Below, in pieces: positions 32,441 to 47,115 of a stretch of DNA of 64,000 bases. The notes under the pieces are model-generated. The model did not search any database. It was given only the letters and a program-made list of their open reading frames with translations, and had not been told where the DNA came from. Location: contig CP031964.1 in assembly GCA_003443635.1 (NCBI GenBank), positions 962,321 to 1,026,320 of the forward strand, given 5' to 3'. The number at the start of each line of letters is the position of its first letter. Position 1 is the first letter of the stretch. The DNA is from Flavobacteriaceae bacterium. GTDB lineage: Bacteria; Bacteroidota; Bacteroidia; Flavobacteriales; Flavobacteriaceae. A program made the position numbers and the translations under genes.

Positions 32441-33445
32441 TTGAAAAACAATAAACTACAACAATTAAACGTAGAATACATTCCAGGACAAAAAACAAAC
32501 TGGACGGGGAGATCATCTAACCCAAAATTAGATAATCAATATTGGTATCAATCTATTGTATTAAAAGATATTAATAACTTGAAAATTGATGATAGTATTG
32601 ATATAGCTATAATAGGTTACGTTTGTGATGAAGGTGTTAGAAGAAATTTAGGAAGAGTAGGTGCAAAAGATGGAGCAAAAATACTTAGAGAGAGACTGGC
32701 AAAACTTCCTATTCATTATGAGGCAAAACTTATTGCAGATGTTGGAGATGTAGTTTGTGTAGAAGATGATATGGAAGCTTGCCAAAAAGGATTAGCAAAC
32801 GGAATTACTAATTTACTTGAAAATAATATTTTTCCGATAGCCATAGGAGGTGGGCACGATATTGCTTATGGGCATTTTATGGGAATCCAAGAATTTGTAA
32901 AAAACATATCAAATAAAAAAATCGGAATTATAAACTTTGATGCACATTTTGATTTGCGAACTGTAGACAAGCAAAGTAATTCTGGAACTCCATTTAATCA
33001 AATTATTCAGAAATTAAAAGATGTAGATGAAACTTTAGAGTATTTTGTTGTTGGGATACAACAACAATCTAATACCAAAGAACTTTTTGATATAGCCCAA
33101 CGAGAGAATGTAGATTACACTTTTAATGACGATTGCCAATCTATTTCAGATATTGAAGTTTTAAAAAATAAATTGACTTCATTTGTTTCAAAAGTTGATT
33201 ATATTTATTTAACTATCGATATGGATTGTTTTTCTTCTGCATTTGCACCAGGTGTAAGTGCGCCATCTCCATTGGGATTAACACCTCAGGTTGTATTTGA
33301 AATACTAAACTTTTTACTTCAAACTAAAAAAATAATATCTTGTGATATAGCAGAATTAAATCCAGTAGTAGATTTTAATAATCACACTTCTAATTTAGTA
33401 GCAAGATTGGTAGATTTTATAGTAATGAATTATCCTGAAAAATAA
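32441..33445 (+). CDS. hutG: Formimidoylglutamase (arginase family)
   Basis: 334 residues starting at TTG (TTG AAA AAC AAT); the nearby ATG at 32436 is out of frame and closes at once. Binuclear manganese arginase-fold motifs are intact: GGGHDIAYGH, NFDAHFDLR and YLTIDMDCF. It releases formamide from N-formimidoyl-L-glutamate to give glutamate, so the operon uses the four-step HutHUIG route rather than the five-step HutF route. The family also contains agmatinase and arginase, but the position directly after hutI decides the call. Confidence 0.92.
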   Translation: MKNNKLQQLNVEYIPGQKTNWTGRSSNPKLDNQYWYQSIVLKDINNLKIDDSIDIAIIGYVCDEGVRRNLGRVGAKDGAKILRERLAKLPIHYEAKLIADVGDVVCVEDDMEACQKGLANGITNLLENNIFPIAIGGGHDIAYGHFMGIQEFVKNISNKKIGIINFDAHFDLRTVDKQSNSGTPFNQIIQKLKDVDETLEYFVVGIQQQSNTKELFDIAQRENVDYTFNDDCQSISDIEVLKNKLTSFVSKVDYIYLTIDMDCFSSAFAPGVSAPSPLGLTPQVVFEILNFLLQTKKIISCDIAELNPVVDFNNHTSNLVARLVDFIVMNYPEK

Positions 33446-33540
33446 TTTATTTCTAAAATTAATTTGTTAAAATCATCGATAATTAAAACCTTGTTAGTTT
33501 AATTGTCGTAAGTAGAGAAAGAAAAATATAGAATAGTACT

Positions 33541-33711
33541 ATGTTGACAATTTTGATACTTGCAATTTTTATTACCCTATCACTTATAGCACTTTTAATA
33601 GCAAACATTAATAGAGTAAAAGAAGCACGAATATATGGTGTGAAATTAGAAAAAAAGAACTTCTATTATTCACTAATTGCTAAAGTTTTTATTAAAGATT
33701 TACCTAATTAA
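33541..33711 (+). CDS. Small single-pass membrane protein, 56 residues
   Basis: ATG at 33541 to TAA at 33709. MLTILILAIFITLSLIALLIA is one long membrane helix (shown in part here: ILILAIFITLSLIALL), followed by a basic cytosolic tail RVKEARIYGVKLEKKNFYYS. The positive-inside tail and the codon pattern support a real gene. About 95 bases after hutG and convergent with the K+ channel gene. No family recognised; a regulatory or accessory membrane peptide is possible. Confidence 0.45.
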   Translation: MLTILILAIFITLSLIALLIANINRVKEARIYGVKLEKKNFYYSLIAKVFIKDLPN

Positions 33712-33726
33712 AGATAAGTTTTAGTT

Positions 33727-34380
33727 TTAAGATTTTACATTAATGTATTTTCCAACAAAAACAGCAATGACAATAGCAAGATAAAATTGCCCTATAATAT
33801 TCATTACTAAAGTAATAGCTTGAGCTTGAGGAGTGAGTGGTGTAATATCACCATATCCTACTGTTGTAACACTAATAAAGCTAAAATAATAAAAGATATA
33901 CCCGGAATAATCTCCTCTAAAATGAAAAGACCCAGGGTCTATAAAAGCAATACCTTCAAAAAGAATTCCGCCAATAATGCCTAAATAAATAAAACCTAAT
34001 ATAGGGCCTAGTATAAATTGTAAGTTTATCTCCTTTATTTTTTTTAACTGCTGTAATAGCAAAATACAGAAGTATAAGAATAAAAGAAATGAAGAAGAAA
34101 GACGCAACGTTTTTATGATATTTGTGTTAGGATTTGAAAACTCTAACCAAATAAAAATTAAGGCAATAACTCCTAATATATAGGTTCTTAATCGAGTTTT
34201 TGCGTTAGATGCTATTAATGAACTTGCAAGAATTACTAGGGTATAATTTACAACTACCACTTGAGCAGGATACATACCAGAAAGACTAGTATGAATAGGG
34301 GTCAATAGAAAATTAAATACACTAATTAATGCAATTAAATATTTATAAGTACTTAATGTTTCTATTAACTTTTTTTTCAT
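33727..34380 (-). CDS. Two-pore-helix type potassium channel protein
   Basis: 217 residues. Several hydrophobic segments fill the N-terminal 120 residues (about 14-30, 42-58, 65-82, 92-110); then comes an ion-channel core: helix (FILGPILGFIYLGIIGG), pore helix with selectivity filter SVTTVGYGDITPLTP (about 170-184) and a last helix (ITLVMNIIGQFYLAIVIAVFVG). TVGYGD is the K+ filter. No RCK/TrkA domain is attached. Last gene of the Rieske-associated run, 25 bases after malic enzyme; a K+ leak would help balance charge or membrane potential, but this link is inference. Confidence 0.85.
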   Translation of the reverse strand: MKKKLIETLSTYKYLIALISVFNFLLTPIHTSLSGMYPAQVVVVNYTLVILASSLIASNAKTRLRTYILGVIALIFIWLEFSNPNTNIIKTLRLSSSFLLFLYFCILLLQQLKKIKEINLQFILGPILGFIYLGIIGGILFEGIAFIDPGSFHFRGDYSGYIFYYFSFISVTTVGYGDITPLTPQAQAITLVMNIIGQFYLAIVIAVFVGKYINVKS

Positions 34381-34405
34381 ACACTTACTTTATAATATTA
34401 AAAAC

Positions 34406-35587
34406 TTAACTTTCATTGTAGGCATTAATAACAGCTTGAGCTACTTTAGCAGCTATTTCATTATTTAAACTTTCAGGAATAATGCGCTCTCTGCTAGGTT
34501 GTGTTACACAATCTGCAATTGCAAAAGCTGCGGCAATTTTCATTCTTGGCGTAATACGTTTTGCTCTACAATCCAAAGCACCTCTAAAAATTCCTGGAAA
34601 AGCTAATACATTATTCACTTGATTAGGATAATCGCTTCTCCCAGTTGCAATAATTGCAGCACCACCTTCTAAAGCTTCTTCAGGAGTGATTTCTGGATCG
34701 GGATTTGCTAAAGCAAAAACTACAGGATCTTTAGCCATTGTTTTTATATCTGCAGCGGTTAAAATATTAGCTACGCTTACACCTATAAATACATCTGCAT
34801 CTTTAATAGCATCTTTTAAAGTGCCTTCAATATTTTGAGGGTTAGAATAATTTAGTAGTTCTGTTTTTACAGGATTTAAATTTGCTCTGTTTTTATGAAT
34901 GATACCTTTGCTGTCACAAACTAATATTTGTTTTACAGGAATACAAACATTAGGATCGATACTGATACAACGTAATAATCTAGAGATAGCAATTCCAGCA
35001 GCACCAGCACCATTAATTACAATTTTTAAATCAGATATATCTTTGCCCAATACTTTACAACTATTTAAAATACCAGCTAGAGCAACAATAGCAGTACCAT
35101 GTTGGTCATCATGAAATACAGGGATGCCAATATCCTGTAATGCTGTTTCTATTTCAAAACTACGTGGAGCAGAAATATCTTCAAGGTTTACACCCCCAAA
35201 AACTGGAGCTATCCGTTTTACAGTTTCAATAATTTCTGAAGAAACGGTTGTATTTAAGCAAATAGGAAATGCATCAACATTAGCAAATTTTTTAAATAAC
35301 ATTGCTTTACCTTCCATAACAGGGATTGCTGCTTCTGGCCCAATATTACCTAAGCCTAATACTGCAGTACCGTCAGATACTACTGCAATAGTATTACCTT
35401 TAATTGTTAAATCGTAAGCTTTTTCAATATTCTCGGATATTTCTAAACAAGGTGCAGCAACTCCTGGAGAGTATACTCTTGAAAGATCATCTGAAGTATT
35501 TACATCTATTTTTGAAATTACTTCAATTTTTCCTTTATGCTCTGCATGAAGCTTCAGAGACTCTTTATAAAAGTCGTGTTTAGACAT
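34406..35587 (-). CDS. NAD(P)-dependent malic enzyme, short form
   Basis: 393 residues, the short malic enzyme without the C-terminal phosphotransacetylase-like domain of MaeB. It converts malate to pyruvate and CO2 with reduction of NAD(P)+. Family motifs: VYSPGVAAPC near 38-47, DGTAVLGLGNIGPEA, VFHDDQHGTA near 157-166 (catalytic/metal Asp residues), NGAGAAGIA of the Rossmann domain, and FALANPDPEI. Whether it prefers NAD or NADP cannot be read. It lies inside the minus-strand run with the Rieske proteins; its product pyruvate is a plausible substrate for the ThDP enzyme at 38093. Confidence 0.93.
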   Translation of the reverse strand: MSKHDFYKESLKLHAEHKGKIEVISKIDVNTSDDLSRVYSPGVAAPCLEISENIEKAYDLTIKGNTIAVVSDGTAVLGLGNIGPEAAIPVMEGKAMLFKKFANVDAFPICLNTTVSSEIIETVKRIAPVFGGVNLEDISAPRSFEIETALQDIGIPVFHDDQHGTAIVALAGILNSCKVLGKDISDLKIVINGAGAAGIAISRLLRCISIDPNVCIPVKQILVCDSKGIIHKNRANLNPVKTELLNYSNPQNIEGTLKDAIKDADVFIGVSVANILTAADIKTMAKDPVVFALANPDPEITPEEALEGGAAIIATGRSDYPNQVNNVLAFPGIFRGALDCRAKRITPRMKIAAAFAIADCVTQPSRERIIPESLNNEIAAKVAQAVINAYNES

Positions 35588-35618
35588 TCGTTATTTTTTT
35601 TATTATAAAAAATAGTAA

Positions 35619-36416
35619 TTAATATATTTTTGAAGGCTGATTTAAATCTTGAATAGAATTAACATCAATTTGTAATTGATACCAATCTTCTACTCTAACA
35701 ACTTTTCCATTAATTAAAGAAGGTTTTCCTATATAAGGAAGAATATCTTTATGAATTGGATTTCCTTTTTTATCAGTAATTAAATAATATTCAGAAATAT
35801 TATTTTCATCATTAGTTGCTAAAACTGGGGGAATACCACCAGCAATACAAAGTGCAGCACAACTTCTGTGAATTTTCCCTTTCCCAGGTTTCATCACTCC
35901 AAAATAACATTTAGGATCGATGACCTCTCCCTTAAATTCCATATTATTAGCTACTTGTTCTACTTTTGGTAATCTATTAGGATTCGTTTTTTCAACTAAT
36001 GAAATTTTTTCATCATTGGTAATCTGCAATAATGTTTTCCCATTGTAGTAGATAAGATTTCCTTCTATACTTAAGATGCTTCCAGATAGCTTAGGAGTTT
36101 TACTTCTTATTTTTTCTAGAAAAGGATTAGCGCTCGATTTACCAAAACCTAAAAGTAAAATATTTTTATAAGTATTTTCAGCTGTTTTAACTTTAAGCAT
36201 TGGATAAGGCATTTCATGATATACCCCAGTAATTTTAGTACTTGTAGTTAACTCAAAAGTGCTATTTTTAAATGTGTTTTGTGTTAATGCAAAAATAGAA
36301 GCTATAGCAATCAATCCTAATAAACTAAAAACGACAAATAGCCTTGTTGTTTTCTTTGTTTTAGTAGACGTATTATCGAGATAGCCTACATAAAAATCAT
36401 CTTCTTCATTTTTCAT
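35619..36416 (-). CDS. Membrane-anchored protein with a conserved Cys/His segment, function unknown
   Basis: 265 residues. One membrane helix (about 26-45), then an extracytoplasmic part. The first half is beta-rich; the second has a striking block near 163-200: EVIDPKCYFGVMKPGKGK, His183, RSCAALCIAGGIPP, with Cys170, Cys186 and Cys190. The C-x3-C pair plus a third Cys and a His could bind a metal, haem or an iron-sulfur cluster. I do not recognise a named family. It is directly downstream of the ferric-reductase/Rieske gene (10-base gap), so a role as its partner or electron carrier on the outer face of the inner membrane is the best guess. Confidence 0.7.
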   Translation of the reverse strand: MKNEEDDFYVGYLDNTSTKTKKTTRLFVVFSLLGLIAIASIFALTQNTFKNSTFELTTSTKITGVYHEMPYPMLKVKTAENTYKNILLLGFGKSSANPFLEKIRSKTPKLSGSILSIEGNLIYYNGKTLLQITNDEKISLVEKTNPNRLPKVEQVANNMEFKGEVIDPKCYFGVMKPGKGKIHRSCAALCIAGGIPPVLATNDENNISEYYLITDKKGNPIHKDILPYIGKPSLINGKVVRVEDWYQLQIDVNSIQDLNQPSKIY

Positions 36417-36426
36417 AAATTATATA

Positions 36427-37458
36427 TTAAATAATTACAGGGTTAACTTCAGTTCCTTCAGCCATTGCTTCTGGATGTACATATATTTTATTGTTCTCAG
36501 TTTTTAAATTATAAGTAGCAATTTTTTCAGTAAAAGGAGGAGGAGATTGCCCATTATGAGGAAGGTATTGATAACCATGCCAAGGACAAGTTACACATCC
36601 ATCGATCACTTTCCCTTCTCCTAATGGTCCACCTTGATGCTTACATACATTTGAAATTGCAGATAATTTATTATCATATTTAAAAACTGCTATTCGCTCG
36701 TTATTAACTATAAATATTTTTGCTCTATCTTCTGGAATTTCATCAATATCACAAACATATTCCCATCCATCTACAATATCTTCAGTCTTAGTTTTATCGG
36801 TTTTAGATTCTATTAAACTAGTTCTTATATGCAATCCTGCGATAATTATAAAACCTAAGCTTAACATAGAGATTGACCATAATGAAGGCTGTTGTTGTAA
36901 AGCTCCTAAAAACACATGTAAAATAACTAAGGTGTACGCTAAATATACCATCATATGTAAACGCTTCCACAATTTAGGCGATAGGTTCTTTAACCAAAAA
37001 TCATGACTGGTAGATGCCATAATAAATAAGATGATTAATGCAAAAAAACCTAATACTTGAAATGGAAAATTGGTAAGCGAACCATAATCCATATTAGATG
37101 TAAATAAAGCATAGATTGGATTTACGTTTCCAAGAGAATGAAATTGGAAAATAGAAAACCCACCATGGATTAATGCAGCGAGAAACATACTTACTCCTAG
37201 ATGTCTACGATTGTATAATAATGGTGAAAATCTAGAATTTAATCTAACCAAAGGACCAATTACTAATATTACGTGTAATAAAGCGATGGCTAACGTTCCA
37301 AATGCTCTTATAATTAATGTCTCAATACTAGTCTCAGGATTAGTAATTAAAGTAATGCCTATAAAGCATAATAGATAGATAAGCATCCCTAAAATAATCC
37401 ATTTATCATAGATTTTTTTATTTCGGTTCCAAAGAACGGTTTGATAATTTACTCCCAT
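36427..37458 (-). CDS. Ferric-reductase/YedZ-like haem membrane protein fused to a C-terminal Rieske [2Fe-2S] domain
   Basis: 343 residues. Residues about 20-215 form six membrane helices with paired histidines suited to b-haem (His62, His98, His168, His181), as in the ferric-reductase-like transmembrane domain (YedZ/MsrQ, NOX). Residues about 230-335 form a Rieske domain: Cys272-x-His274 in VCKHQGGPLGEG and Cys291-x2-His294 in CPWHGYQY, spacing C-x-H-x16-C-x2-H, so cluster ligation looks intact. The likely job is electron transfer between a cytoplasmic [2Fe-2S] donor and membrane haem, then quinone or a periplasmic acceptor. The start overlaps the preceding 140-residue gene by 10 bases. Confidence 0.85.
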   Translation of the reverse strand: MGVNYQTVLWNRNKKIYDKWIILGMLIYLLCFIGITLITNPETSIETLIIRAFGTLAIALLHVILVIGPLVRLNSRFSPLLYNRRHLGVSMFLAALIHGGFSIFQFHSLGNVNPIYALFTSNMDYGSLTNFPFQVLGFFALIILFIMASTSHDFWLKNLSPKLWKRLHMMVYLAYTLVILHVFLGALQQQPSLWSISMLSLGFIIIAGLHIRTSLIESKTDKTKTEDIVDGWEYVCDIDEIPEDRAKIFIVNNERIAVFKYDNKLSAISNVCKHQGGPLGEGKVIDGCVTCPWHGYQYLPHNGQSPPPFTEKIATYNLKTENNKIYVHPEAMAEGTEVNPVII

Positions 37459-37871
37459 TGTAATTTTAGATTAGAAATATCAATTTTTTTTATATCATCA
37501 TAAATACGTAATCCCTTTATTGATCTATCAATATCAAAAGTGTAAATGCCTTTCTTATCTATAACTCCCAAGTAAATTTCTTTTCCAGAATCTGATGAAG
37601 TGCCATACACAATAGATGAAGCACTTTTTAAAGGTTTTTTAACCACAATGTTTAACATATTTAAAGATGTGTTTTTCCCTTGAACACTTATATGAAAACT
37701 ATCATTATCTAAAATTGTATTTTGTACATTGTTTTTAGAAACAATTTTTAAATCACTATCTGTAAATAATGGTTCTTTGATACTTTTTATAGAAAAAACA
37801 ATTAATACAGGTATAGCAATAATTAATATTATCCATATAATTTTATGTACTTTTCTTAAATCTGAAGTCAT
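37449..37871 (-). CDS. Single-pass membrane-anchored protein, function unknown
   Basis: 140 residues. One N-terminal membrane helix (KIIWIILIIAIPVLIVFSI, about 10-28) and an extracytoplasmic beta-rich domain of about 110 residues (HISVQGKNTSLNML, KKPLKSASSIVYG, GVIDKKGIYTFDID). No cofactor motif is visible. Its 3' end overlaps the start of the haem/Rieske gene by 10 bases, so production is coupled to that protein and it may be an assembly factor or subunit. No family recognised. Confidence 0.7.
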   Translation of the reverse strand: MTSDLRKVHKIIWIILIIAIPVLIVFSIKSIKEPLFTDSDLKIVSKNNVQNTILDNDSFHISVQGKNTSLNMLNIVVKKPLKSASSIVYGTSSDSGKEIYLGVIDKKGIYTFDIDRSIKGLRIYDDIKKIDISNLKLQWE

Positions 37872-37873
37872 AA

Positions 37874-38092
37874 TTATGTTTTTAGTTTACGAATTCGAAT
37901 TATCTTGATAAGAAGAACAGGCCATAAACCAATAGCTCCTGGAGTTAAAAGTAAACGTACAGTCCATTTGCTTTCTGCTATTAATTCGTCTAACAAAAAA
38001 GAACCTTTTACAAAAAAATAAATGCCGAATAAAACTCCAATTCCAAAATATAAGCCTAAAAGTGTTACTACAATTTGAATAACTGTTTCCAT
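37874..38092 (-). CDS. Small two-helix membrane protein
   Basis: 72 residues with two hydrophobic helices (IQIVVTLLGLYFGIGVLFGIYF, about 5-27, given here by its ends, and TPGAIGLWPVLLIKII, about 50-65) joined by ELIAESKWTVRLLL. It sits between the Rieske-ThDP gene (stop directly adjacent) and the 140-residue gene (2-base gap). Its size and position suggest a small subunit of the membrane complex encoded by its neighbours. No family recognised. Confidence 0.65.
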   Translation of the reverse strand: METVIQIVVTLLGLYFGIGVLFGIYFFVKGSFLLDELIAESKWTVRLLLTPGAIGLWPVLLIKIIRIRKLKT

Positions 38093-40042
38093 TTATATAA
38101 GATTTACATCTGTAATTATTTCTAACAATGCAGGTCCGTTATGTGCTTTTAATTGCTCCATTGCCGGAATCAATTCATCAAGCTTTTCAACACGTATCCC
38201 TAAAGCACCACAATTTTCTGCAAAAGCAGCAAAACTTGGATTTTTAAGAGATGTTTGCCAAACATCAACTTCTGCTGCACGTTGTTCTTTAGAAATTTTT
38301 CCTAATTCAGAATTATTAAGAACAATATGTTTAATATTCATATTATACTTTACTAAAGTCGTAATTTCTGCTAAATACTGCCCTAAACCTCCATCTCCAG
38401 AAACAGACCATATAGGACGCTCATGACCTTGAGCTGCCCATGCTCCAATAGCTGCAGGTAAGGCAAAACCTATAGAGCCCAAATATCCAGACATTAAAAC
38501 AGATTGATTTTTTGGCTCAAAATACCTTCCAAACGAATACGTGTTATTTCCAACATCTACCGCTATTACAGCATTTTCAGGAGTGATTTTATTCATAGCA
38601 TCAAATACTGCAATAGAACTTAAAGCATTACCACAATCTTTTAATCTGCTTTCTTTTTCTTCTTTCCAGTAACTCCATCGTTCGACAATTTCATCACGTT
38701 GATTTATAGCATTTGTTTTTCCTTGTGTTTGTTCTTTAATAAGTTTAAGCGTTTCCGAAATTTCACCCCAAAGTGCTACATCTACTTTGTGAAACTTACT
38801 TAATGCCATTGCATCAAAATCAACTTGAATTATAGGTTTCTTTGGTGTAATCCCTGTATGGTTAGAGAAAGATGCTCCAAATACAAGTAATACATCAGAT
38901 TCGTTCATAAACCAAGACGCTATTGGTGTTCCGCTTCGCCCTAAAACACCGCAACCTAAAGGATGATTATCAGGAATAAGCCCTTTTCCTTTAAAAGTTG
39001 TAATTACTGGGCAATTAAGACTTTCAGCATAAGCAATAATAGATTCCATTTGAAAACGTGCTCCATGCCCAACAATAATTACAGGCCTTTTTGCCTCTTT
39101 AAGCAAAGCAACTGCCTTTTCAGTCATCTCTTTGGGAGGTGTAATATTAAATGGAGTAATTCTATTTTCTGGTGTTTGTGGTTTTTCGTGTTCAGGCTTT
39201 TTTGTGAAGGCGACTTCGTCCGGAAACGTTAAATGAGTAACATCTCTTTTTATAAGTGCATTTTTAATAGCTAAAGACATTAGCTCACTATGATTTGAAT
39301 TTAAATGCACGGCGTGATTAAATTCTGCAACACTTTCAAAAGCTTTGACTAAATCAACTTCTTGAAAAGCACCAGTACCAACTACTTGTGTATTTATTTG
39401 ACCAGATAGCGCCAAAAGTGGTACGCGATCTACTTTTGCATCCCACATTCCTGTAAACATATTCGTAGCACCTGGGCCTGCAATACCAAAACAAGCAGCA
39501 GGTTTCCCTGTAAGTTTTGCATATCCAGAAGCAGCAAAAGCAGCAGCGCCTTCATGTCTGATTCCAAAATATTTAAGTTTCCCTTGTTTTTCTTGTCTGC
39601 GCATTGCATCAGCGACACCAAGGTTTGAGTGCCCTACCATTCCAAAAACAGTATTCACGCCCCAATTTACCATCGTCTCTACCATAACATCAGAAATAGT
39701 TTCTTCATGAGGTACTTCTTCTTCAATACCAACAAAAACTGACCCCTCTTCTTCTTTTACAGGGAATGTATCGATACCATCATCATATCCACCTGGTGGT
39801 AAACCAGTACAAGGGTCGAAATCCCAACCGTGCCAAGGGCAGCGTAATAATCCATTTTCTATAGATCCTTCTCCTAAAGGCCCTCCTTGATGCGGACATT
39901 TATTATCTAATGCAGAAAATTTACCTTTATAATGTGTTAAGCAAATCCCCTTATGATCTGCTGTTACTGTTTTTACTCTACCTTCAGGTAATTCACTTTT
40001 GTTTAATAATACTTTGTGCCAAACTAGTTTTTTAGTACTCAT
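38093..40042 (-). CDS. Rieske [2Fe-2S] domain fused to a pyruvate-oxidase-like thiamine-diphosphate enzyme
   Basis: 649 residues. Residues 1-110 are a Rieske domain (Cys49-x-His51 in KCPHQGGPLGEG, Cys68-x2-His71 in CPWHGWDF, spacing x16). Residues about 112-649 are a full ThDP enzyme: Pyr domain with catalytic Glu164 (IRHEGAAAFAASGYA) and GIAGPGATN; middle domain (about 305-430, VIIVGHGARF, TTFKGKGLIPD); PP domain with the ThDP/Mg motif SGDGGLGQYL (Asp550) to LNNSELG. The C-terminal motifs resemble PoxB and acetolactate-synthase relatives. The fusion suggests that electrons from a ThDP-bound enamine go to the [2Fe-2S] centre. Substrate unknown; pyruvate is favoured by the malic enzyme nearby. 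Confidence 0.9.
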   Translation of the reverse strand: MSTKKLVWHKVLLNKSELPEGRVKTVTADHKGICLTHYKGKFSALDNKCPHQGGPLGEGSIENGLLRCPWHGWDFDPCTGLPPGGYDDGIDTFPVKEEEGSVFVGIEEEVPHEETISDVMVETMVNWGVNTVFGMVGHSNLGVADAMRRQEKQGKLKYFGIRHEGAAAFAASGYAKLTGKPAACFGIAGPGATNMFTGMWDAKVDRVPLLALSGQINTQVVGTGAFQEVDLVKAFESVAEFNHAVHLNSNHSELMSLAIKNALIKRDVTHLTFPDEVAFTKKPEHEKPQTPENRITPFNITPPKEMTEKAVALLKEAKRPVIIVGHGARFQMESIIAYAESLNCPVITTFKGKGLIPDNHPLGCGVLGRSGTPIASWFMNESDVLLVFGASFSNHTGITPKKPIIQVDFDAMALSKFHKVDVALWGEISETLKLIKEQTQGKTNAINQRDEIVERWSYWKEEKESRLKDCGNALSSIAVFDAMNKITPENAVIAVDVGNNTYSFGRYFEPKNQSVLMSGYLGSIGFALPAAIGAWAAQGHERPIWSVSGDGGLGQYLAEITTLVKYNMNIKHIVLNNSELGKISKEQRAAEVDVWQTSLKNPSFAAFAENCGALGIRVEKLDELIPAMEQLKAHNGPALLEIITDVNLI

Positions 40043-40049
40043 ATGTTAT

Positions 40050-40436
40050 TTAGTATGTTGATTCGTTAAATTGATCTTGCCTTATTTTTACGGCTCTTAC
40101 AGAATATTTAATAAGGTAAGATATAGAAATAAATGTAGATAAGACTCCTACAAGCATTAATGCAATGCCAATGTTTTGTGAAATATCATAGAAATTCTGA
40201 ATTCCAAAAAGTATGCCTGCTGCAACTAGAGTTGCAGCACCTACATATAAACCTACCAAACCTTTATTTAATAGATGTAATTGCTTTAATTTTCTAGTTG
40301 TTATAGAGTCATTACATTTTTTAAGTTGTATCCGTTCTGCAATTTCATTACTTAACGCAATTAAAAGATTAGATGTAGATAAGATTAACAGACCAATTCC
40401 TGGTAAAATTGTAATGGGAACATACCAATTTTCCAT
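40050..40436 (-). CDS. DUF2721-like membrane protein
   Basis: 128 residues with an N-terminal helix (ITILPGIGLLILSTSNLLIAL), a charged helical stretch (EIAERIQLKKCNDSITTRKL) and two further membrane helices (VGLYVGAATLVAAGILFG and IGIALMLVGVLSTFISISYL). This arrangement recalls the DUF2721 family, which has no known function. It is 7 bases upstream of the Rieske-ThDP gene and 3 bases after the antiporter, hence within the same run. Confidence 0.65.
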   Translation of the reverse strand: MENWYVPITILPGIGLLILSTSNLLIALSNEIAERIQLKKCNDSITTRKLKQLHLLNKGLVGLYVGAATLVAAGILFGIQNFYDISQNIGIALMLVGVLSTFISISYLIKYSVRAVKIRQDQFNESTY

Positions 40437-40439
40437 AAT

Positions 40440-41669
40440 TTAATTTAATAATTTTTTTATAACTTTTTCTACACTTAAACCCTGTGCTATAATTGAAAAT
40501 ACAACTATTACATAAGTAGCATATAAAATAATATCTTTTATATCTCCTTCAGGTAATGTTAATGCTAATGCAATTGAAATACCTCCCCTTAACCCAGCCC
40601 AGGTTAATATAATCCGCTCTTTATTGTTTGCTTTATGTGATTTTTTAAGTAAAAAATTAGATAAAAGAATTGCGATGTACCTTGAAAAAAGCACAATGAA
40701 AATTGAAATTATCCCTAATATTAGATGATTAAAATTAAAATCAAGTGCAATAATTTCTATTCCTATAAGAACAAAAAGCACAGCATTAAAAATTTCATCC
40801 AAGACTTTCCAAAAGATATTCATATGAGTTTTAAGATCATCTGGAATTTCTTTTGAATGAAGACTGTGGCCAATAATAAGCCCCGCAACAACCATGGCTA
40901 TAGCACCAGAAACACCAATAAAATCAGATAGCCAATAACCACCTAATACAATGGCTAAAGAAATATGAACAGCTATTATTGGTTGATCAATTATTCCTCG
41001 TATACAACGTTTTCCTATAAACCCTAAAACAAACCCCATTAGCAATCCTCCGCCTGCTTCTAAAGCAAACTCTTTTGCTATATGAGTAATTTCGAATTCG
41101 TGGGCCATTGTTGCTAAAGAGAATAGAGATAAAAATACGACAATACCTACACCGTCATTAAACAATGATTCTCCTACAATTTTTATTTCCATATGTTTTG
41201 GGGCACCAGCTTTTTTTAATAAAGCTAGTACTGCTACAGGGTCTGTTGGTGAAATTAAAGAACCAAAAACTAAACAATACAAATAATCTATAGGTAAACC
41301 TATAGCATTTGTAGTATAAAAGAATATGCTGCCAATTAAAAATGTGGATACAAGTACACCAAAAGTAGCATAGATAATTACAGAGCCTTTTTCTTTAAGC
41401 AAACCATGTAAATTAACATGAATAGATCCTGCAAAAAGAAGGATGCCTAATAAAAAATCGAATAAAATAGTTTTAAAATCTATTTGTCTAACCGTGTGTG
41501 TGAGTTCTGTAAAATAGCTTTCATCAATAAAATAAACCGAGGCAAATAGTAATGATGCTGCAATAGATAGAATCATTATGCCAATAGTTTCAGGAAGCTT
41601 TAAAAATTTATAATTGAGATAACTTAACAGCCCCGCAAGTGCGGTAATACCTATAAATATGTCGAACAT
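40440..41669 (-). CDS. Cation:proton antiporter, CPA1 (NhaP) type
   Basis: 409 residues with about 12 membrane helices. The ion site is recognisable: LISPTDPVAVLALLKKAG (the TDP unwound motif) and GESLFNDGVGIVVFL (the ND pair of CPA1 exchangers), plus the late WAGLRGGISIALAL segment. It exchanges H+ for Na+ or K+. It begins with an ATG overlapping the stop of the preceding gene by one base (TAATG), so translation is coupled. It lacks the long cytosolic tail of some family members. In this setting it may adjust ion or proton balance around a redox complex. Confidence 0.9.
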   Translation of the reverse strand: MFDIFIGITALAGLLSYLNYKFLKLPETIGIMILSIAASLLFASVYFIDESYFTELTHTVRQIDFKTILFDFLLGILLFAGSIHVNLHGLLKEKGSVIIYATFGVLVSTFLIGSIFFYTTNAIGLPIDYLYCLVFGSLISPTDPVAVLALLKKAGAPKHMEIKIVGESLFNDGVGIVVFLSLFSLATMAHEFEITHIAKEFALEAGGGLLMGFVLGFIGKRCIRGIIDQPIIAVHISLAIVLGGYWLSDFIGVSGAIAMVVAGLIIGHSLHSKEIPDDLKTHMNIFWKVLDEIFNAVLFVLIGIEIIALDFNFNHLILGIISIFIVLFSRYIAILLSNFLLKKSHKANNKERIILTWAGLRGGISIALALTLPEGDIKDIILYATYVIVVFSIIAQGLSVEKVIKKLLN

Positions 41670-42424
41670 TATAATGATGGTTTTGTGTAATTATTAATTG
41701 CATTTTCGTAAAAGTTAATAGCTATTTCTTTATTGATTCCAGTAATTGGTAGTGCAATACCTTTCCATTCGTTATTATAATAACGACCGTATTTAATTTC
41801 CTTTGTGTTAGATAACTCTATATTATCATGACCTTTATAACCACTAACATATAAATAAAAATCATTTATCATATTGTCAGGGATAGCCATGCCAACACCG
41901 ATACCAATACCATTAGAATCAACAAAGAAAGAGCCAGTATCAAAATGATGAGGCCAAATTCTAATATCTGTTATAAGATTATAGTTTTTTAAGGTAAATT
42001 CTATCGCTTGCTGAGCAAGAGTTCTGTAACTAATTAAAACATCCAGCTCATTACGGTTTTTTAATTCAAATACGTAATCATCAGTTATTGCTTTGTATGG
42101 CAAATCATAATGCAACTTATATGCATATGGGATTGTAATTCCATGTTCTTCACTAGTTTTACTAATCCATTCTACAATATTTTTATGAGTTTTTTTGTGT
42201 AACGAAAAATGATTAGTCACAGTATTATTTACTAACCATTCTAAAGAAAAAGAATTATAGTTTAGCGATAAAACATCTCCAGTACTGTTTAATGGATGTG
42301 TTTGCAGAGAAGCTAAATTACTTACCCACCCCAAATTAGTATGACTGTCGTCATCTCTCTTTTCTATAAAACTAATTCCAGCAGTAGCTAGATATTGAGC
42401 TGCTAAATGCATTTGTATTTTCAT
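41669..42424 (-). CDS. Hypothetical cytosolic protein with a WPHHFD motif
   Basis: 251 residues, no signal peptide or membrane helix. The N-terminus reads MKIQMHLAAQYLATAGISF, the middle holds a run of mixed alpha/beta sequence, and residues near 157-166 carry RIWPHHFDTGSFF followed by GIGIGVGMAIPD. His-His-Phe-Asp after Trp-Pro suggests a metal or substrate site. I do not recognise the family. It is coupled to the antiporter gene (1-base overlap) and separated by 104 bases from the Rieske-GltS gene. Confidence 0.65.
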   Translation of the reverse strand: MKIQMHLAAQYLATAGISFIEKRDDDSHTNLGWVSNLASLQTHPLNSTGDVLSLNYNSFSLEWLVNNTVTNHFSLHKKTHKNIVEWISKTSEEHGITIPYAYKLHYDLPYKAITDDYVFELKNRNELDVLISYRTLAQQAIEFTLKNYNLITDIRIWPHHFDTGSFFVDSNGIGIGVGMAIPDNMINDFYLYVSGYKGHDNIELSNTKEIKYGRYYNNEWKGIALPITGINKEIAINFYENAINNYTKPSL

Positions 42425-42528
42425 TAGTTGAGTAAGTTTTAGTTTCTTTTTAACAATACTTCTTTTTTAATTCAAATTTCTATTAGGTTTATTTAATAAA
42501 AATAAGACTAGCAATTTAAGTTTACGAT

Positions 42529-44136
42529 CTAAATACCTGCATAATTTATTCCTGTTAATTTATGCATATCTGTATTAAAAGTTGATAAGTCATTATGATT
42601 AAATTTTGAAATATCATCATATCCACAAGCTCTTGCTACAACTTTTATGAGGTTATTTGTAGCGTCAAAATAATTGTGTAATTGCTTTGCGGATTCGTTA
42701 ATAATAATACGACTACGTAATGATTCTTTTTGTGTAGCTATACCAACAGGGCAATTATTAGATCCGCATGCCCGCATACCTAAACAACCAATAGCTTGCA
42801 AAGCAGAATTAGAAACAGCAATAGCATCAGCACCAAGCATCATAGCTTTGGCAAAATCTTCTGCAACGCGTAAACCTCCTGTAATTACTAAAGTAACATC
42901 TGTAGCGCCAACTTTATCCATATATTTTCTTGCTCTTGCCAAAGCCGGAATTGTTGGTACATTAATATGATCTCTTAAAATGGTTGGAGCAGAACCTGTT
43001 CCGCCACCACGGCCATCAAGGATAATATAATCGACACCAACATCTAAGGCAAATTGAATATCTTTTTCAATATGACTCGCTGCTATTTTAAAACCAATAG
43101 GTATTCCTCCTGTACGTTCTCTTACTTTATCTGCAAAGTCCTTAAAATCTTGAACAGTATGAAAATTTGGGTTTGCTGCTGGAGAAATAGCTGTTTCACC
43201 TTCTTTAAGCCCACGAACTTGAGCAATTTCTGCACTTACTTTTGATCCTGGTAAATGACCTCCAGTTCCAGTTTTAGCACCTTGACCAGCTTTAAAATGA
43301 AACGCTTGTACATTATCAAGTTTATCCCATGTAAATCCAAATTGCGCAGAAGCTAGTTCGTAAAAATATTTTGAATTGTTAGATTGTTCTTCAGGAAGCA
43401 TACCACCTTCACCAGAACAAATTCCTGTTCCTGCTAGCTCAGCACCTTTTGATAAAGCAATTTTTGCTTCACGAGATAAGGCTCCAAAACTCATGTCACT
43501 TACAAAAAGTGGAATATCTAACTCTAATGGCTTCTTAGCATTAGGACCAATGATCACTTTAGTAACAACATCTTCTTCATCTAATAAGGGTCTTGAAGCT
43601 AATTGTGCTGGTAAAAACTGAATATCATTCCAATTTGGAAGTGTATTTCTGTCGACCCCCATAGATGCTGAAAACCCATGATGACCAATGTTTTTTAATC
43701 CATTTTGAGCTAACTCTTTTATATAATTAGTATAGGGTTCAGTATCTTCAGGATGAGTATCGGCATAAGCACCTAAATATTGATCACGATTAAATGGCTG
43801 TGGATGGTTTTCTAAATAGGCATCAATTTCAAATTCATCTACAAAAAGATCATTTCCTTCTATTTTAGTAGAAAACTTATGGAGTACTTCTTTATTATTA
43901 TATTCTGAAACTCCAGAATCTACACGATAATCCCAACCGTGAACACCACAAATAAGATTATGTCCATCTATATACCCATCAGACATTAAAGCTCCTCTGT
44001 GAAGGCATCTCCCATATAAAACAGAAATATCCTCATCAAATTTTACAACAACAAGATCAAGTCCGTTAACTAGAGCATGTACAGGCTTTTTGTTTTCTAA
44101 TTCTGAGATTTTTACAATGGCTATTGGTTTTTTCAT
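42529..44136 (-). CDS. Rieske [2Fe-2S] domain fused to a glutamate-synthase-type FMN/[3Fe-4S] domain
   Basis: 535 residues. Residues 1-100 form a Rieske domain (Cys44-x-His46 in RCLHRGALM, Cys63-x2-His66 in CGVHGWDY, x16 between). Residues about 170-535 are the FMN barrel of glutamate synthase: SDMSFGALSREAK (214-225), GEGGMLPEE, KAGQGAKTGTGGHLPGSKV region near 283-300, LDGRGGGTG, and the [3Fe-4S] ligands Cys451-x5-Cys457-x4-Cys462. The glutaminase domain of true GltS is absent, so it is not a complete glutamate synthase; it may transfer electrons or use ammonia or another amine. First gene of the Rieske run, downstream of the Crp/Fnr gene. Confidence 0.9.
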   Translation of the reverse strand: MKKPIAIVKISELENKKPVHALVNGLDLVVVKFDEDISVLYGRCLHRGALMSDGYIDGHNLICGVHGWDYRVDSGVSEYNNKEVLHKFSTKIEGNDLFVDEFEIDAYLENHPQPFNRDQYLGAYADTHPEDTEPYTNYIKELAQNGLKNIGHHGFSASMGVDRNTLPNWNDIQFLPAQLASRPLLDEEDVVTKVIIGPNAKKPLELDIPLFVSDMSFGALSREAKIALSKGAELAGTGICSGEGGMLPEEQSNNSKYFYELASAQFGFTWDKLDNVQAFHFKAGQGAKTGTGGHLPGSKVSAEIAQVRGLKEGETAISPAANPNFHTVQDFKDFADKVRERTGGIPIGFKIAASHIEKDIQFALDVGVDYIILDGRGGGTGSAPTILRDHINVPTIPALARARKYMDKVGATDVTLVITGGLRVAEDFAKAMMLGADAIAVSNSALQAIGCLGMRACGSNNCPVGIATQKESLRSRIIINESAKQLHNYFDATNNLIKVVARACGYDDISKFNHNDLSTFNTDMHKLTGINYAGI

Positions 44137-44178
44137 AATGGATATTTCTGATTTTTAAAGTTTTTATATGTTGTTTTG

Positions 44179-44209
44179 CACTATTAGAATTGTGTTCTAT
44201 CTAATAGTG
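44179..44209. repeat. Perfect 10-base inverted repeat between crp-like and Rieske-GltS genes
   Basis: CACTATTAGA (44179-44188) and TCTAATAGTG (44200-44209) flank an 11-base loop. On the plus strand the repeat is followed by TTTTTAATTTTT, terminator-like, but both neighbouring genes run on the minus strand, where no U-run follows. It may be an operator for the first Rieske gene (the Crp/Fnr protein is a candidate), an RNA processing hairpin, or the end of an unrecognised plus-strand transcript. Confidence 0.5.
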
Positions 44210-44212
44210 TTT

Positions 44213-44875
44213 TTAATTTTTAGTTGCTATAATATGCTTTACATCATATTTAATTAGTTCGTTTTTACGCATGGTACTTAACACGTTACTTACTGTCTGC
44301 CTTGAAGTATTTGTGAGATTTGCGATATCCTTATGAGTTAATAAATTTTTTGCGACTAATACTCCATTTTCATTTTCTTCACCAAACTCGTTTAGATAAT
44401 CGATTATAAATTCTTTAATGCGTGTATTACTATCTTTATATAATAAATCGTGAAGCCTTCGTTCTAATTTTTTTATTCGTGTTCCATAGATTTTGAGAAC
44501 ACCATTTTTTAAAGATTTATGTTTTTCCATAATCCGTTCCATACGATCAGACTCTATAAAACAAACAATACAATCTTCTAAAGCAATGGCTTGCTCTTGA
44601 GCAGCAGCTTCTTTATCATAAAGTGAGAGTTCTCCAAAAATATGTCCTTTTTTTACAATATATTTTACATTTTGGCTTACAGTATCAACAATTTTAACAG
44701 AACCTTTTTTAAGAAAGAAAATGCTTTTTTCATCTTTATTGAGCAGGTGTATTGTTTTACCTTTTTCAATATTATCCATTTCTAAAATTTCGCACATACG
44801 CATCATAGTTAACCTTCCTAATTTATTAAAAAGATTGAAACCTTCTAAAAACCAATACTTCGTGAATGTGTTCAA
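44213..44875 (-). CDS. Crp/Fnr-family transcriptional regulator
   Basis: 220 residues. The cyclic-nucleotide-binding-like beta-roll spans about 20-140 (FFLKKGSVKIVDT, KKGHIFGELSLYDKEAAA) and the Crp-type HTH is near 160-215 (LLTHKDIANLTNTSRQTVSN). No cluster of four Cys of the FNR [4Fe-4S] type is visible, so it is not a classical oxygen sensor. The ligand is unknown. It is 76 bases upstream of the Rieske-GltS gene on the same strand; the 10-base inverted repeat lies between. It may be cotranscribed with the Rieske run or control it. Confidence 0.88.
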   Translation of the reverse strand: MNTFTKYWFLEGFNLFNKLGRLTMMRMCEILEMDNIEKGKTIHLLNKDEKSIFFLKKGSVKIVDTVSQNVKYIVKKGHIFGELSLYDKEAAAQEQAIALEDCIVCFIESDRMERIMEKHKSLKNGVLKIYGTRIKKLERRLHDLLYKDSNTRIKEFIIDYLNEFGEENENGVLVAKNLLTHKDIANLTNTSRQTVSNVLSTMRKNELIKYDVKHIIATKN

Positions 44876-44982
44876 AATATAAATTGTATTAAAGGGTTAC
44901 TCAAAAATATAGAATTCGGATGATAAAAAATATTGAAAAAAAGCCAATACTTACTCTACACGACAATATGATGTATATAAAC

Positions 44983-45954
44983 CTATATTTTTAAACGAAT
45001 TCCAGTTTTTAAAAACAAACTAGATTCGTTATTTATAGTAAAAAGATTATCTCTATTATTTGTCCTTAATCTTATATTATTAGTAAATGTATATGCAGCT
45101 TGCGCAAAAAATTCAAGATGATTTATGATATGATACTCATACTGAAGCCCACCTAAAATAGTAGAAACATTAAGTATTCTTGCTATATCGTTTTGTCCGT
45201 CAATAGAAATGCCGTTTTGCAAATTTGCCGTAAACCCATCTAATTCTGTCGAGAGTTTAAATCGATGTTTTGAAGATAAATGGTATTGTAAATTGGTTTT
45301 TGGAATCCCTAAATTATAAGACCACTTTTTATGAAACTTTTTGTAATAACTTATAAATGGTAAAGGGAAAAAGTAACCTCTATTTTGTGAGTAAGTAACT
45401 CCTAAAATTAATCGATCTTTTTTATCGTTTTCAAATTCACGTTCTCTTATAAATACAACATCAGCAGAAATCACTAGATCTTCAAAAGACAAATTATTAG
45501 CGGTTAAATTTGTACTAAAACCTGGTTTAACTCTAACACCAAGTCTCCAATTATTTTTTAAAGGTTTTGTATAGCCTAAAGTAAGATCTAATGATTGAAA
45601 ATCGTTAATTAATTCTTTGTCAAAAGAAGGATTCTCACGATTTATAATTAATTGAACATTACTATAATCTAAGCCTAATAAAAGATATTCTCCTTCTTTT
45701 TTTAATTTAATAGGAACATTAAATAAACCTCTTGATTTTGTATATTCTACTTTGGAGTTGTTTTCTGGGATAATAGTGAAATCTAATCGAGCTAAATCAC
45801 TTAATTGTGCATTACTAGTAGTAAAAAGCATTAAAAACAAAAGTGTTACTGTAACCTTGTTCAATATAAACGAGAATTTAATGCCTTGATGATTTTTTAA
45901 AGTTTTCAGATATATGTGTTTTATAAAGTTTCTAAATTTAGAAATATTATTCAT
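44983..45954 (-). CDS. Outer-membrane beta-barrel protein, DUF6268-like
   Basis: 323 residues from the ATG at 45954. A signal peptide core (VTVTLLFLMLFTTSNAQ) ends near residue 50, which leaves an unusually long basic N-terminus; a non-ATG start closer to it (about residue 31) is possible. The mature part is a run of amphipathic beta-strands (NWRLGVRVKPGFS, RLILGVTYSQNRGYFFPLPFIS, HLEFFAQAAYTFTNNI) ending in SLFLKTGIRLKI, a typical outer-membrane C-terminal strand. Resembles DUF6268 barrels, whose function is unknown. It lies 107 bases upstream of the Crp/Fnr gene on the same strand. Confidence 0.75.
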   Translation of the reverse strand: MNNISKFRNFIKHIYLKTLKNHQGIKFSFILNKVTVTLLFLMLFTTSNAQLSDLARLDFTIIPENNSKVEYTKSRGLFNVPIKLKKEGEYLLLGLDYSNVQLIINRENPSFDKELINDFQSLDLTLGYTKPLKNNWRLGVRVKPGFSTNLTANNLSFEDLVISADVVFIREREFENDKKDRLILGVTYSQNRGYFFPLPFISYYKKFHKKWSYNLGIPKTNLQYHLSSKHRFKLSTELDGFTANLQNGISIDGQNDIARILNVSTILGGLQYEYHIINHLEFFAQAAYTFTNNIRLRTNNRDNLFTINNESSLFLKTGIRLKI

Positions 45955-46211
45955 AATATGTTTTCATTTAACATTTAAAAAGCAATTCCTAAGAGAAAAT
46001 TAAAATAACTTCTTATGTTCTCTTCAAATATTATAGTAATATAAACTATAGAAAAAGCACTTGTTGCTGCTTAAATCATTTTAAATTAGTTGATTAGATC
46101 GCCTGAAACACTATTTTTAATCATGTTTACTATAATTAAACTTAATTATAATCATAAAATAATTTCCAAAGTAATACGAAAAACAGTGTAATAACATCAT
46201 GAACAAAAGAG

Positions 46212-46219
46212 TATCTTTG
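46212..46219 (+). promoter_or_regulatory. -7 promoter box upstream of era
   Basis: TATCTTTG at 46212-46219 is a full match to the Bacteroidota -7 box TAnnTTTG, 17 bases upstream of the era ATG. A good TTG at -33 is not seen. The rest of the 282-base interval 45955-46236 is AT-rich and I see no gene in it. Confidence 0.5.
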
Positions 46220-46236
46220 TCGCCAAATAAGATAAA

Positions 46237-47115
46237 ATGCATAAAGCAGGCTTTGTAAATATTATAGGAAACCCTAATGTAGGGAAATCTACATTAATGA
46301 ATGCGTTTATTGGTGAAAAATTATCAATAATTACATCTAAAGCGCAGACGACGCGCCATCGTATCTTAGGAATTGTTAATGGGGATGATTTTCAAGTTAT
46401 TTTATCTGATACTCCAGGAATTATTAAACCAGCTTATGAATTACAAGAATCGATGATGGATTTTGTAAAATCTGCTTTTGATGATGCTGATGTATTGGTC
46501 TATATGGTTGAGATTGGAGAAAAAGAATTAAAAGATGAAGCTTTTTTTAATAAAATTAAAAATGCTAAAATCCCAGTCTTATTATTGTTAAATAAAATTG
46601 ATAATTCTAATCAAGAGCAGTTAGAAGAACAATCACAATTATGGCAAGAAAAAGTTCCTAACGCAGAATTTTTTCCAATATCTGCTTTAGAAGGATTTCA
46701 GATAAAAGAAGTGTTTAATCGTATTATAGAGCTATTACCAGAATCACCACCTTTTTATCCTAAAGATCAACTTACTGATAAACCGGAACGTTTTTTTGTT
46801 AACGAAACTATTAGAGAAAAAATACTGTTGTATTACAAAAAAGAAATTCCTTATGCTGTTGAAATTGATACGGAAGAATTTTTTGAAGAAGAAGATATTA
46901 TTCGAATGCGTTCAGTAATTATGGTTGAGAGAGAAACTCAAAAAGGAATTATAATTGGACATAAAGGAAGTGCCTTAAAACGTGTTGGTATTGAAGCTAG
47001 AAAAGATTTAGAGAAATTCTTTGGAAAGCAAGTGCATTTAGAGTTATATGTAAAAGTTAATAAAAACTGGCGATCAAATTCTAAACAGCTAAAACGTTTT
47101 GGATATAATCAATAA
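46237..47115 (+). CDS. era: GTPase Era
   Basis: 292 residues, the normal length. GTPase motifs: G1 GNPNVGKST (11-19), G2 Thr region TTRHRI, G3 DTPGI, G4 NKID. A C-terminal KH domain binds the 3' end of 16S rRNA (IIGHKGSALKRVGIEARKDLE region, with GHKG as the loop). It acts in 30S ribosome maturation. Followed by der in its own transcription unit, with a separate -7 box at 47178. Confidence 0.97.
   Translation: MHKAGFVNIIGNPNVGKSTLMNAFIGEKLSIITSKAQTTRHRILGIVNGDDFQVILSDTPGIIKPAYELQESMMDFVKSAFDDADVLVYMVEIGEKELKDEAFFNKIKNAKIPVLLLLNKIDNSNQEQLEEQSQLWQEKVPNAEFFPISALEGFQIKEVFNRIIELLPESPPFYPKDQLTDKPERFFVNETIREKILLYYKKEIPYAVEIDTEEFFEEEDIIRMRSVIMVERETQKGIIIGHKGSALKRVGIEARKDLEKFFGKQVHLELYVKVNKNWRSNSKQLKRFGYNQ

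What the first reader, a model, noticed from the sequence alone, without database searches (positions are those of the whole stretch)
38093..40042. Rieske domain fused to the N-terminus of a ThDP enzyme
PoxB-type enzymes use FAD, and 2-oxoacid:ferredoxin oxidoreductases use [4Fe-4S] clusters; a Rieske [2Fe-2S] attached directly to a PoxB/AHAS-like ThDP fold is an unfamiliar design. All ligands (Cys49, His51, Cys68, His71) and the ThDP motifs (Glu164, Asp550, NNS) are intact and the frame is continuous. The fold also keeps the middle domain, so FAD could be present as well. The electron path would be ThDP enamine to [2Fe-2S], possibly on to the Rieske domain of the membrane protein.
Basis: partly seen in the sequence, partly recalled or inferred. 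Interest (0 to 1): 0.72.

Follow-up and report, generated by a model that had tools for sequence, protein, structure and literature searches.

The report
Rieske-fused pyruvate-oxidase-like enzyme family
This gene encodes a real and widely conserved enzyme that joins a small iron-sulfur electron carrier (a Rieske domain) to a pyruvate-oxidase-type thiamine enzyme; the combination occurs in bacteria and salt-loving archaea, but no study of it was found, so its substrate and electron partner remain to be tested.

Summary
It encodes an N-terminal Rieske domain (11-80) followed by all three ThDP-enzyme domains (115-642). It is not a one-off: the 101 aligned members (52-100% identical), from Bacteroidota, haloarchaeal plasmids and a Mycobacteroides plasmid, all carry the fusion. 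All four Rieske ligands, Glu164 and Asp550 are invariant. The ThDP part forms one clade, sister to pyruvate oxidases (POX, PoxB) and apart from acetohydroxyacid synthases (support 100/100); the predicted fold is closest to E. coli PoxB. It lacks PoxB's C-terminal membrane helix, and PoxB Phe465, which helps ThDP-to-FAD transfer, is an invariant Lys582. The best-linked partner is not the membrane Rieske protein (29 of 65 loci) but a soluble Rieske-glutamate-synthase-like fusion (57 of 65 loci; 10 of 11 genomes; also on haloarchaeal plasmids). Most likely it oxidatively decarboxylates a 2-oxo acid and passes electrons through its own Rieske cluster. Substrate, FAD content and cluster distance could not be tested. 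No paper, PDB entry or curated family for the fusion was found. Verdict: a new, uncharacterised variant of a known kind.

The parts
38093..40042 (-). Rieske-ThDP fusion gene, 649 aa
   Evidence: ORF; Pfam; full-length relatives
39722..40033 (-). Rieske domain, residues 4-107
   Evidence: Pfam 11-80; beta fold in the model; nearest solved relatives are dioxygenase-system Rieske ferredoxins
39830..39898 (-). Rieske ligand stretch Cys49-x-His51 ... Cys68-x-x-His71
   Evidence: invariant in 101 of 101
39347..39700 (-). PYR (TPP_enzyme_N) domain, residues 115-232, with catalytic Glu164 and Phe226-Gln227
38744..39121 (-). middle (dinucleotide-binding-type) domain, residues 308-433
   Evidence: aligned
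38117..38557 (-). PP (TPP_enzyme_C) domain, residues 496-642, with Asp550
38297..38299 (-). codon of Lys582, invariant; aligns with PoxB Phe465
   Evidence: ungapped alignment stretch; 101 of 101
42529..44136 (-). Rieske-GltS: N-terminal Rieske plus glutamate-synthase FMN/[3Fe-4S]-type domain; most conserved neighbour and partner candidate
   Evidence: Pfam; 57 of 65 loci; 10 of 11 genomes; also on haloarchaeal plasmids
36427..37458 (-). ferric-reductase/MsrQ-like membrane protein with C-terminal Rieske; optional partner candidate
   Evidence: Pfam; 29 of 65 loci; 6 of 11 genomes
41669..42424 (-). 251-aa conserved neighbour of unknown family
   Evidence: 49 of 65 loci; no Pfam match
40440..41669 (-). 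Na+/H+ antiporter in the same tight gene run
   Evidence: Pfam; an antiporter gene is near in 54 of 65 loci
40050..40436 (-). 128-aa membrane protein, weak DUF2721 resemblance, 7 bases upstream of the fusion gene
37449..37871 (-). 140-aa protein accompanying the membrane Rieske protein
   Evidence: 29 of 65 loci
35619..36416 (-). 265-aa protein with a likely membrane anchor and a CYFGVMKPGxGKIHRSCAxxC motif, accompanies the membrane Rieske protein
44213..44875 (-). Crp/Fnr-family regulator upstream of the run
   Evidence: Pfam; near in 28 of 65 loci

Best explanation
A soluble ThDP-dependent 2-oxo acid oxidoreductase of the pyruvate-oxidase clade with its own built-in Rieske ferredoxin. Proposed steps: (1) Glu164 activates ThDP, a 2-oxo acid adds and loses CO2, leaving an enamine with two electrons (inferred from conserved motifs and clade). 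(2) The electrons go to FAD in the middle domain, or, given the invariant Lys582 in place of PoxB Phe465, possibly straight outwards (inferred, open). (3) The Rieske [2Fe-2S] takes them one at a time and hands them to a redox partner (inferred). The Rieske would do what membrane-bound quinone does for PoxB, whose C-terminal lipid-binding helix is missing here. The best-linked redox partner is the neighbouring Rieske-GltS FMN/[3Fe-4S] protein, either directly or through a shared small carrier; the membrane heme-Rieske protein is an optional outlet. Shown here: architecture, invariance of ligands and catalytic residues, clade, predicted fold, conserved neighbourhood. Inferred: activity, direction of flow, FAD, partner, substrate.
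For: Both domains present and complete. Ligands Cys49/His51/Cys68/His71, Glu164, Phe226-Gln227 and Asp550 invariant in 101 sequences down to 52% identity, across bacteria and archaea. The Rieske domain is as conserved as the catalytic domains (mean pairwise identity 0.74 against 0.72-0.77; linkers 0.50-0.51), so it is under similar constraint. All close relatives (52% or more) carry the Rieske part. The clade is sister to POX/PoxB (95/93; 100/100 without the two longest branches). Best structural match is E. coli PoxB 3eya, Z 39.6, rmsd 2.9 over 515 residues. The protein ends where PoxB's membrane region begins; the role of that region and of Phe465 is described in PMC7245740. Linkage to a second Rieske-fused redox enzyme: 57 of 65 loci, 10 of 11 genomes, Fisher 3e-9, and near the fusion on two haloarchaeal plasmids.
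Against: No activity, spectrum or FAD evidence. Lys582 and His138 are invariant where pyruvate oxidases have other residues (Phe at 465/479; Gly or Asp), so substrate and electron route may differ from POX. The cluster-to-ThDP distance was not measured. Gene linkage does not prove electron transfer between the two Rieske proteins. The other conserved neighbours are ion transporters and proteins of unknown function, which do not point to a substrate. The Fisher values are not corrected for relatedness of the genomes.
Confidence: 0.6

Rival explanations
1. A non-redox carboligase or decarboxylase (acetolactate-synthase-like or glyoxylate-carboligase-like) in which the Rieske cluster is a redox or oxygen sensor that switches the enzyme, or only stabilises it.
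For: Same fold family; the best AHAS model scores 100 bits below the best POX model; AHAS binds FAD without using it for redox (established knowledge); Lys582 could serve a different chemistry.
Against: The tree places the family with POX/PoxB and against AHAS at 100/100. Linkage to a second Rieske redox enzyme and, in part, to a heme-Rieske membrane protein points to electron transfer. The closest solved relatives of its Rieske domain are electron-carrier ferredoxins.
Confidence: 0.2
2. The electron outlet is the membrane: ThDP to Rieske to the ferric-reductase-like heme protein with C-terminal Rieske (36427-37458) and on to quinone or periplasm.
For: That gene is near 29 of 65 loci and present in 6 of 11 fusion genomes against 7 of 384 others, Fisher 1e-7. 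Its Rieske domain is 38% identical to the one here.
Against: Not detected in 5 of 11 fusion genomes, 4 of which have Rieske-GltS. It also sits beside Rieske-GltS in genomes without the fusion (G104, G184, G195, G246), so it is not specific to this enzyme.
Confidence: 0.15
3. The Rieske delivers electrons into the ThDP enzyme (reductive direction), for example for a reductive carboligation or to keep a flavin reduced.
For: Rieske ferredoxins of dioxygenase systems feed electrons into enzymes; the sequence fixes no direction.
Against: Thiamine enamine intermediates are far more reducing than Rieske-type ferredoxins (established knowledge), so flow outwards is favoured; no reductase is fused or constantly linked.
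Confidence: 0.05

Closest known systems
E. coli PoxB (ubiquinone-dependent pyruvate oxidase)
   Same: Three ThDP-fold domains, catalytic Glu, FQE motif, closest structure (Z 39.6), sister clade.
   Different: No Rieske domain in PoxB; the fusion lacks the C-terminal lipid-activation region and has Lys582 for Phe465.
Lactobacillus/Bacillus pyruvate oxidase (POX, PRK08611-type)
   Same: Best NCBIfam model (407 bits), sister clade.
   Different: Below that model's cut-off of 742; no Rieske in POX; only 33-36% identity over the ThDP part.
Acetohydroxyacid synthase (IlvB/IlvI)
   Same: Same fold and domain order.
   Different: Separate clade at 100/100 support.
Rieske-type ferredoxins of aromatic dioxygenases (naphthalene dioxygenase ferredoxin 2qpz, CarAc 1vck)
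   Same: Nearest solved relatives of the Rieske domain; same ligand pattern.
   Different: Stand-alone carriers for oxygenases, not fused to a ThDP enzyme.
2-oxoacid:ferredoxin oxidoreductases (PFOR/OFOR)
   Same: ThDP enzymes that pass electrons to iron-sulfur clusters (established knowledge).
   Different: Different domain arrangement, CoA-dependent, [4Fe-4S] clusters (established knowledge); none of their domains matched here.
NCBI 'thiamine pyrophosphate-binding protein' entries on haloarchaeal and Mycobacteroides plasmids (e.g. WP_173230874.1)
   Same: Full-length members of this family, 52-59% identical.
   Different: Product name without mention of the Rieske domain; no function assigned.

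Membership tests
Pyruvate oxidase family (POX/PoxB) | Groups with POX/PoxB in a tree against AHAS | tested here: met
   26 rows on one side of a branch, 100/100; the fusion clade is sister to, not inside, POX/PoxB
Pyruvate oxidase family (POX/PoxB) | Passes the curated NCBIfam cut-off for a pyruvate oxidase model | tested here: not met
   PRK08611 407 of 742 bits; all other listed models also below cut-off
Pyruvate oxidase family (POX/PoxB) | Catalytic Glu and the Phe-Gln (FQE) motif | tested here: met
   Glu164, Phe226, Gln227 in 101 of 101
Pyruvate oxidase family (POX/PoxB) | Phe465 (PoxB numbering), which helps electron transfer between ThDP and FAD | tested here: not met
   Lys582 in 101 of 101
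PoxB-type membrane-activated oxidases | C-terminal lipid-activation helix (558-568 in PoxB) | tested here: not met
   the protein ends at about PoxB position 532
Pyruvate oxidase family (POX/PoxB) | Binds FAD | not testable with these tools
   middle domain kept and fold close to FAD enzymes, but ADP-binding and flavin-free relatives score within about 3 Z units
Pyruvate oxidase family (POX/PoxB) | Uses pyruvate as substrate | not testable with these tools
   needs an assay
Rieske [2Fe-2S] proteins, ferredoxin type | C-x-H ... C-x-x-H ligand set in a Rieske domain above the Pfam cut-off | tested here: met
   57.5 bits against 20.3; ligands 101 of 101
Acetohydroxyacid synthase | Groups with AHAS in a tree or passes an AHAS model cut-off | tested here: not met
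   TIGR00118 307 of 538 bits

The most novel reading that the evidence does not exclude
A new class of ThDP oxidoreductase in which a Rieske [2Fe-2S] cluster is the direct or FAD-mediated acceptor of thiamine-enamine electrons, acting on a substrate other than pyruvate (suggested by the invariant Lys582 and His138) and coupled to a second Rieske-fused FMN/[3Fe-4S] glutamate-synthase-like enzyme, the pair having spread together between Bacteroidota and haloarchaea.
Probability: 0.25. Interest if true: 0.8.

Novelty: new variant of a known kind. Interest (0 to 1): 0.58.

Why it matters
Known ThDP oxidoreductases use FAD with quinone or oxygen, or [4Fe-4S] clusters with CoA. A Rieske cluster wired to the pyruvate-oxidase fold would add a further electron route. 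The enzyme is common in marine Flavobacteriia and present on haloarchaeal plasmids, yet is annotated only as 'thiamine pyrophosphate-binding protein'. Its steady company of a second Rieske-fused enzyme makes a specific, testable electron-transfer pair.

Tried and rejected
Chance or assembly artefact: rejected, because full-length fusions recur in about 100 records. AHAS membership: rejected by tree. The first tree held very long branches (Oxc, Gcl); rebuilt without them, same result. Anti-phage defence: no PADLOC match for six cluster proteins. Riboswitch or other known RNA in 33000-46500: none. Promoter and terminator scans: no more hits than in shuffled sequence, uninformative. Search in haloarchaeal genomes: a plasmid locus cannot be a centre. 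Literature searches for Rieske with pyruvate oxidase, thiamine pyrophosphate, thiamine diphosphate or FMN glutamate synthase found no paper on such a fusion; the library holds open-licence PMC papers only. Structure of the 251-aa neighbour: confident model (pLDDT 95) but no significant PDB match, so no hint of function. ThDP-to-cluster distance: not possible, as model coordinates cannot be read.

Full report
CHECK OF THE OBSERVATION. The gene lies on the minus strand of 38093-40042 and encodes 649 aa without an internal stop. Pfam places a Rieske domain at 11-80 and the three ThDP-enzyme domains at 115-232, 308-433 and 496-642, all well above cut-off. The genome has three TPP_enzyme_N genes: this one and those at 3211700 and 1807435. 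The one at 3211700 groups with acetohydroxyacid synthases, and the one at 1807435 matches the query only weakly (21 bits), so this is the only pyruvate-oxidase-like one found.

CONSERVATION. A sample of 395 Bacteroidota genomes held 11 members (the window's own included), all full length, the others 58-84% identical; one (G146) has a TGA inside the frame. The plasmid collection held five full-length fusions: four haloarchaea (57-59%) and Mycobacteroides abscessus (52%); the next-best matches are ordinary pyruvate oxidases at 36% or less, without the Rieske part. In an alignment of 101 sequences Cys49, His51, Cys68, His71, Glu164, His138, Phe226, Gln227, Asp550, Lys582 and Glu586 are invariant. 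The Rieske domain is as conserved as the catalytic domains while the linkers are not, so the Rieske part is under similar constraint.

WHAT KIND OF ThDP ENZYME. NCBIfam ranks a pyruvate oxidase model first, but every model is missed by a wide margin. Trees with E. coli PoxB, IlvB, IlvI, Gcl and Oxc, Lactiplantibacillus and Bacillaceae POX and Bacteroidota relatives make the fusion proteins one clade, sister to POX plus PoxB and separate from AHAS (95/93, without the two longest branches: 100/100). The reference rows are few, so finer placement is not claimed. An AlphaFold2 model (pLDDT 87.5, pTM 0.84) has PoxB 3eya as best match (Z 39.6, rmsd 2.9, 515 residues; Foldseek rank 1). Flavin-free and ADP-binding relatives score only 1-3 Z lower, so the fold does not prove FAD.

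DIFFERENCES FROM PoxB. The protein ends where PoxB's C-terminal membrane region starts. PMC7245740 describes this region (helix 558-568) as the lipid switch whose movement brings Phe465 into the active site and enhances electron transfer between ThDP and FAD. In an ungapped stretch Phe465 aligns with Lys582 here, which is Lys in all 101 sequences. His138 is invariant where POX/PoxB have Gly or Asp. Inference: the membrane switch is lost, the ThDP-to-acceptor step is altered, and a substrate with an extra anionic group is possible. Topology also fits a nearby cluster: the Rieske is joined by a short linker to the first helix of the PYR domain, which should start on the cofactor-facing edge of that sheet (inference from the fold; distance not measured).

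GENE NEIGHBOURHOOD. In the window the fusion sits at the end of a tight run: Rieske-GltS, 251-aa protein, Na+/H+ antiporter, 128-aa protein, Rieske-ThDP; then after 221 bases come the 140-aa protein, the ferric-reductase-like membrane Rieske protein and a 265-aa protein. Among 65 Bacteroidota loci with enough flank, Rieske-GltS is present in 57 (always on the same strand), an antiporter in 54, the 251-aa gene in 49 and the membrane Rieske protein in 29. In 395 genomes, 10 of 11 with the fusion also have full-length Rieske-GltS against 38 of 384 without (Fisher 3e-9); for the membrane Rieske protein it is 6 of 11 against 7 of 384 (1e-7). These counts are not corrected for relatedness of the genomes. 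On two haloarchaeal plasmids the fusion again lies near a Rieske-GltS gene, and on one of them also near a Na+/H+ antiporter and an ion channel. Rieske-GltS keeps both the Rieske ligands and a C-x5-C-x4-C motif in 67 of 67 loci; that this motif holds a [3Fe-4S] cluster is established for glutamate synthase.

MECHANISM. Most likely a 2-oxo acid is decarboxylated on ThDP and the enamine electrons leave through the tethered Rieske, with or without FAD in between, to a partner, for which Rieske-GltS is the best-linked candidate and the membrane Rieske protein an optional one. Architecture, invariance, clade, predicted fold and linkage are shown; activity, FAD, direction, substrate and partner are inferred.

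COMPARISON WITH THE KNOWN. No solved structure was found that covers both domains: the listed ThDP-enzyme hits begin at residue 112 or later, and Rieske hits are dioxygenase ferredoxins and oxygenases. No paper found describes the fusion, within an open-licence library. The plasmid members are annotated only as 'thiamine pyrophosphate-binding protein'. Hence a new variant of a known kind.

Noticed in passing
window 42529-44136 (-): A second Rieske fusion: Rieske at the N-terminus of a stand-alone glutamate-synthase FMN-type domain with a C-x5-C-x4-C motif, widespread in Bacteroidota (48 of 395 genomes at full length) and on haloarchaeal plasmids.
   Followed up: partly
window 41669-42424 (-): 251-aa conserved neighbour without Pfam match; invariant DDS and WPHHFD motifs; confident model (pLDDT 95) but no significant PDB fold match.
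   Followed up: partly
window 35619-36416 (-): 265-aa protein with a CYFGVMKPGxGKIHRSCAxxC-type motif conserved in relatives, found together with the membrane Rieske protein; no Pfam family.
   Followed up: partly
window 36427-37458 (-): MsrQ/ferric-reductase-like membrane domain with a C-terminal Rieske domain; also beside Rieske-GltS in genomes that lack the ThDP fusion.
   Followed up: partly
L119 9001-16676: Halorarius plasmid with the fusion, Na+/H+ antiporter, pentapeptide-repeat ion channel and Rieske-GltS in one stretch, resembling the flavobacterial locus.
   Followed up: partly
L121 6154-6870 and L075 6969-7727: Flavodoxin-like (FMN_red) proteins of similar sequence lie near the fusion both in Mycobacteroides and in some Flavobacteriaceae; possible shared carrier.
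   Followed up: no
L110 (G146:C2:445171-447120): One relative carries a TGA inside the otherwise full-length frame; error or decay not resolved.
   Followed up: no
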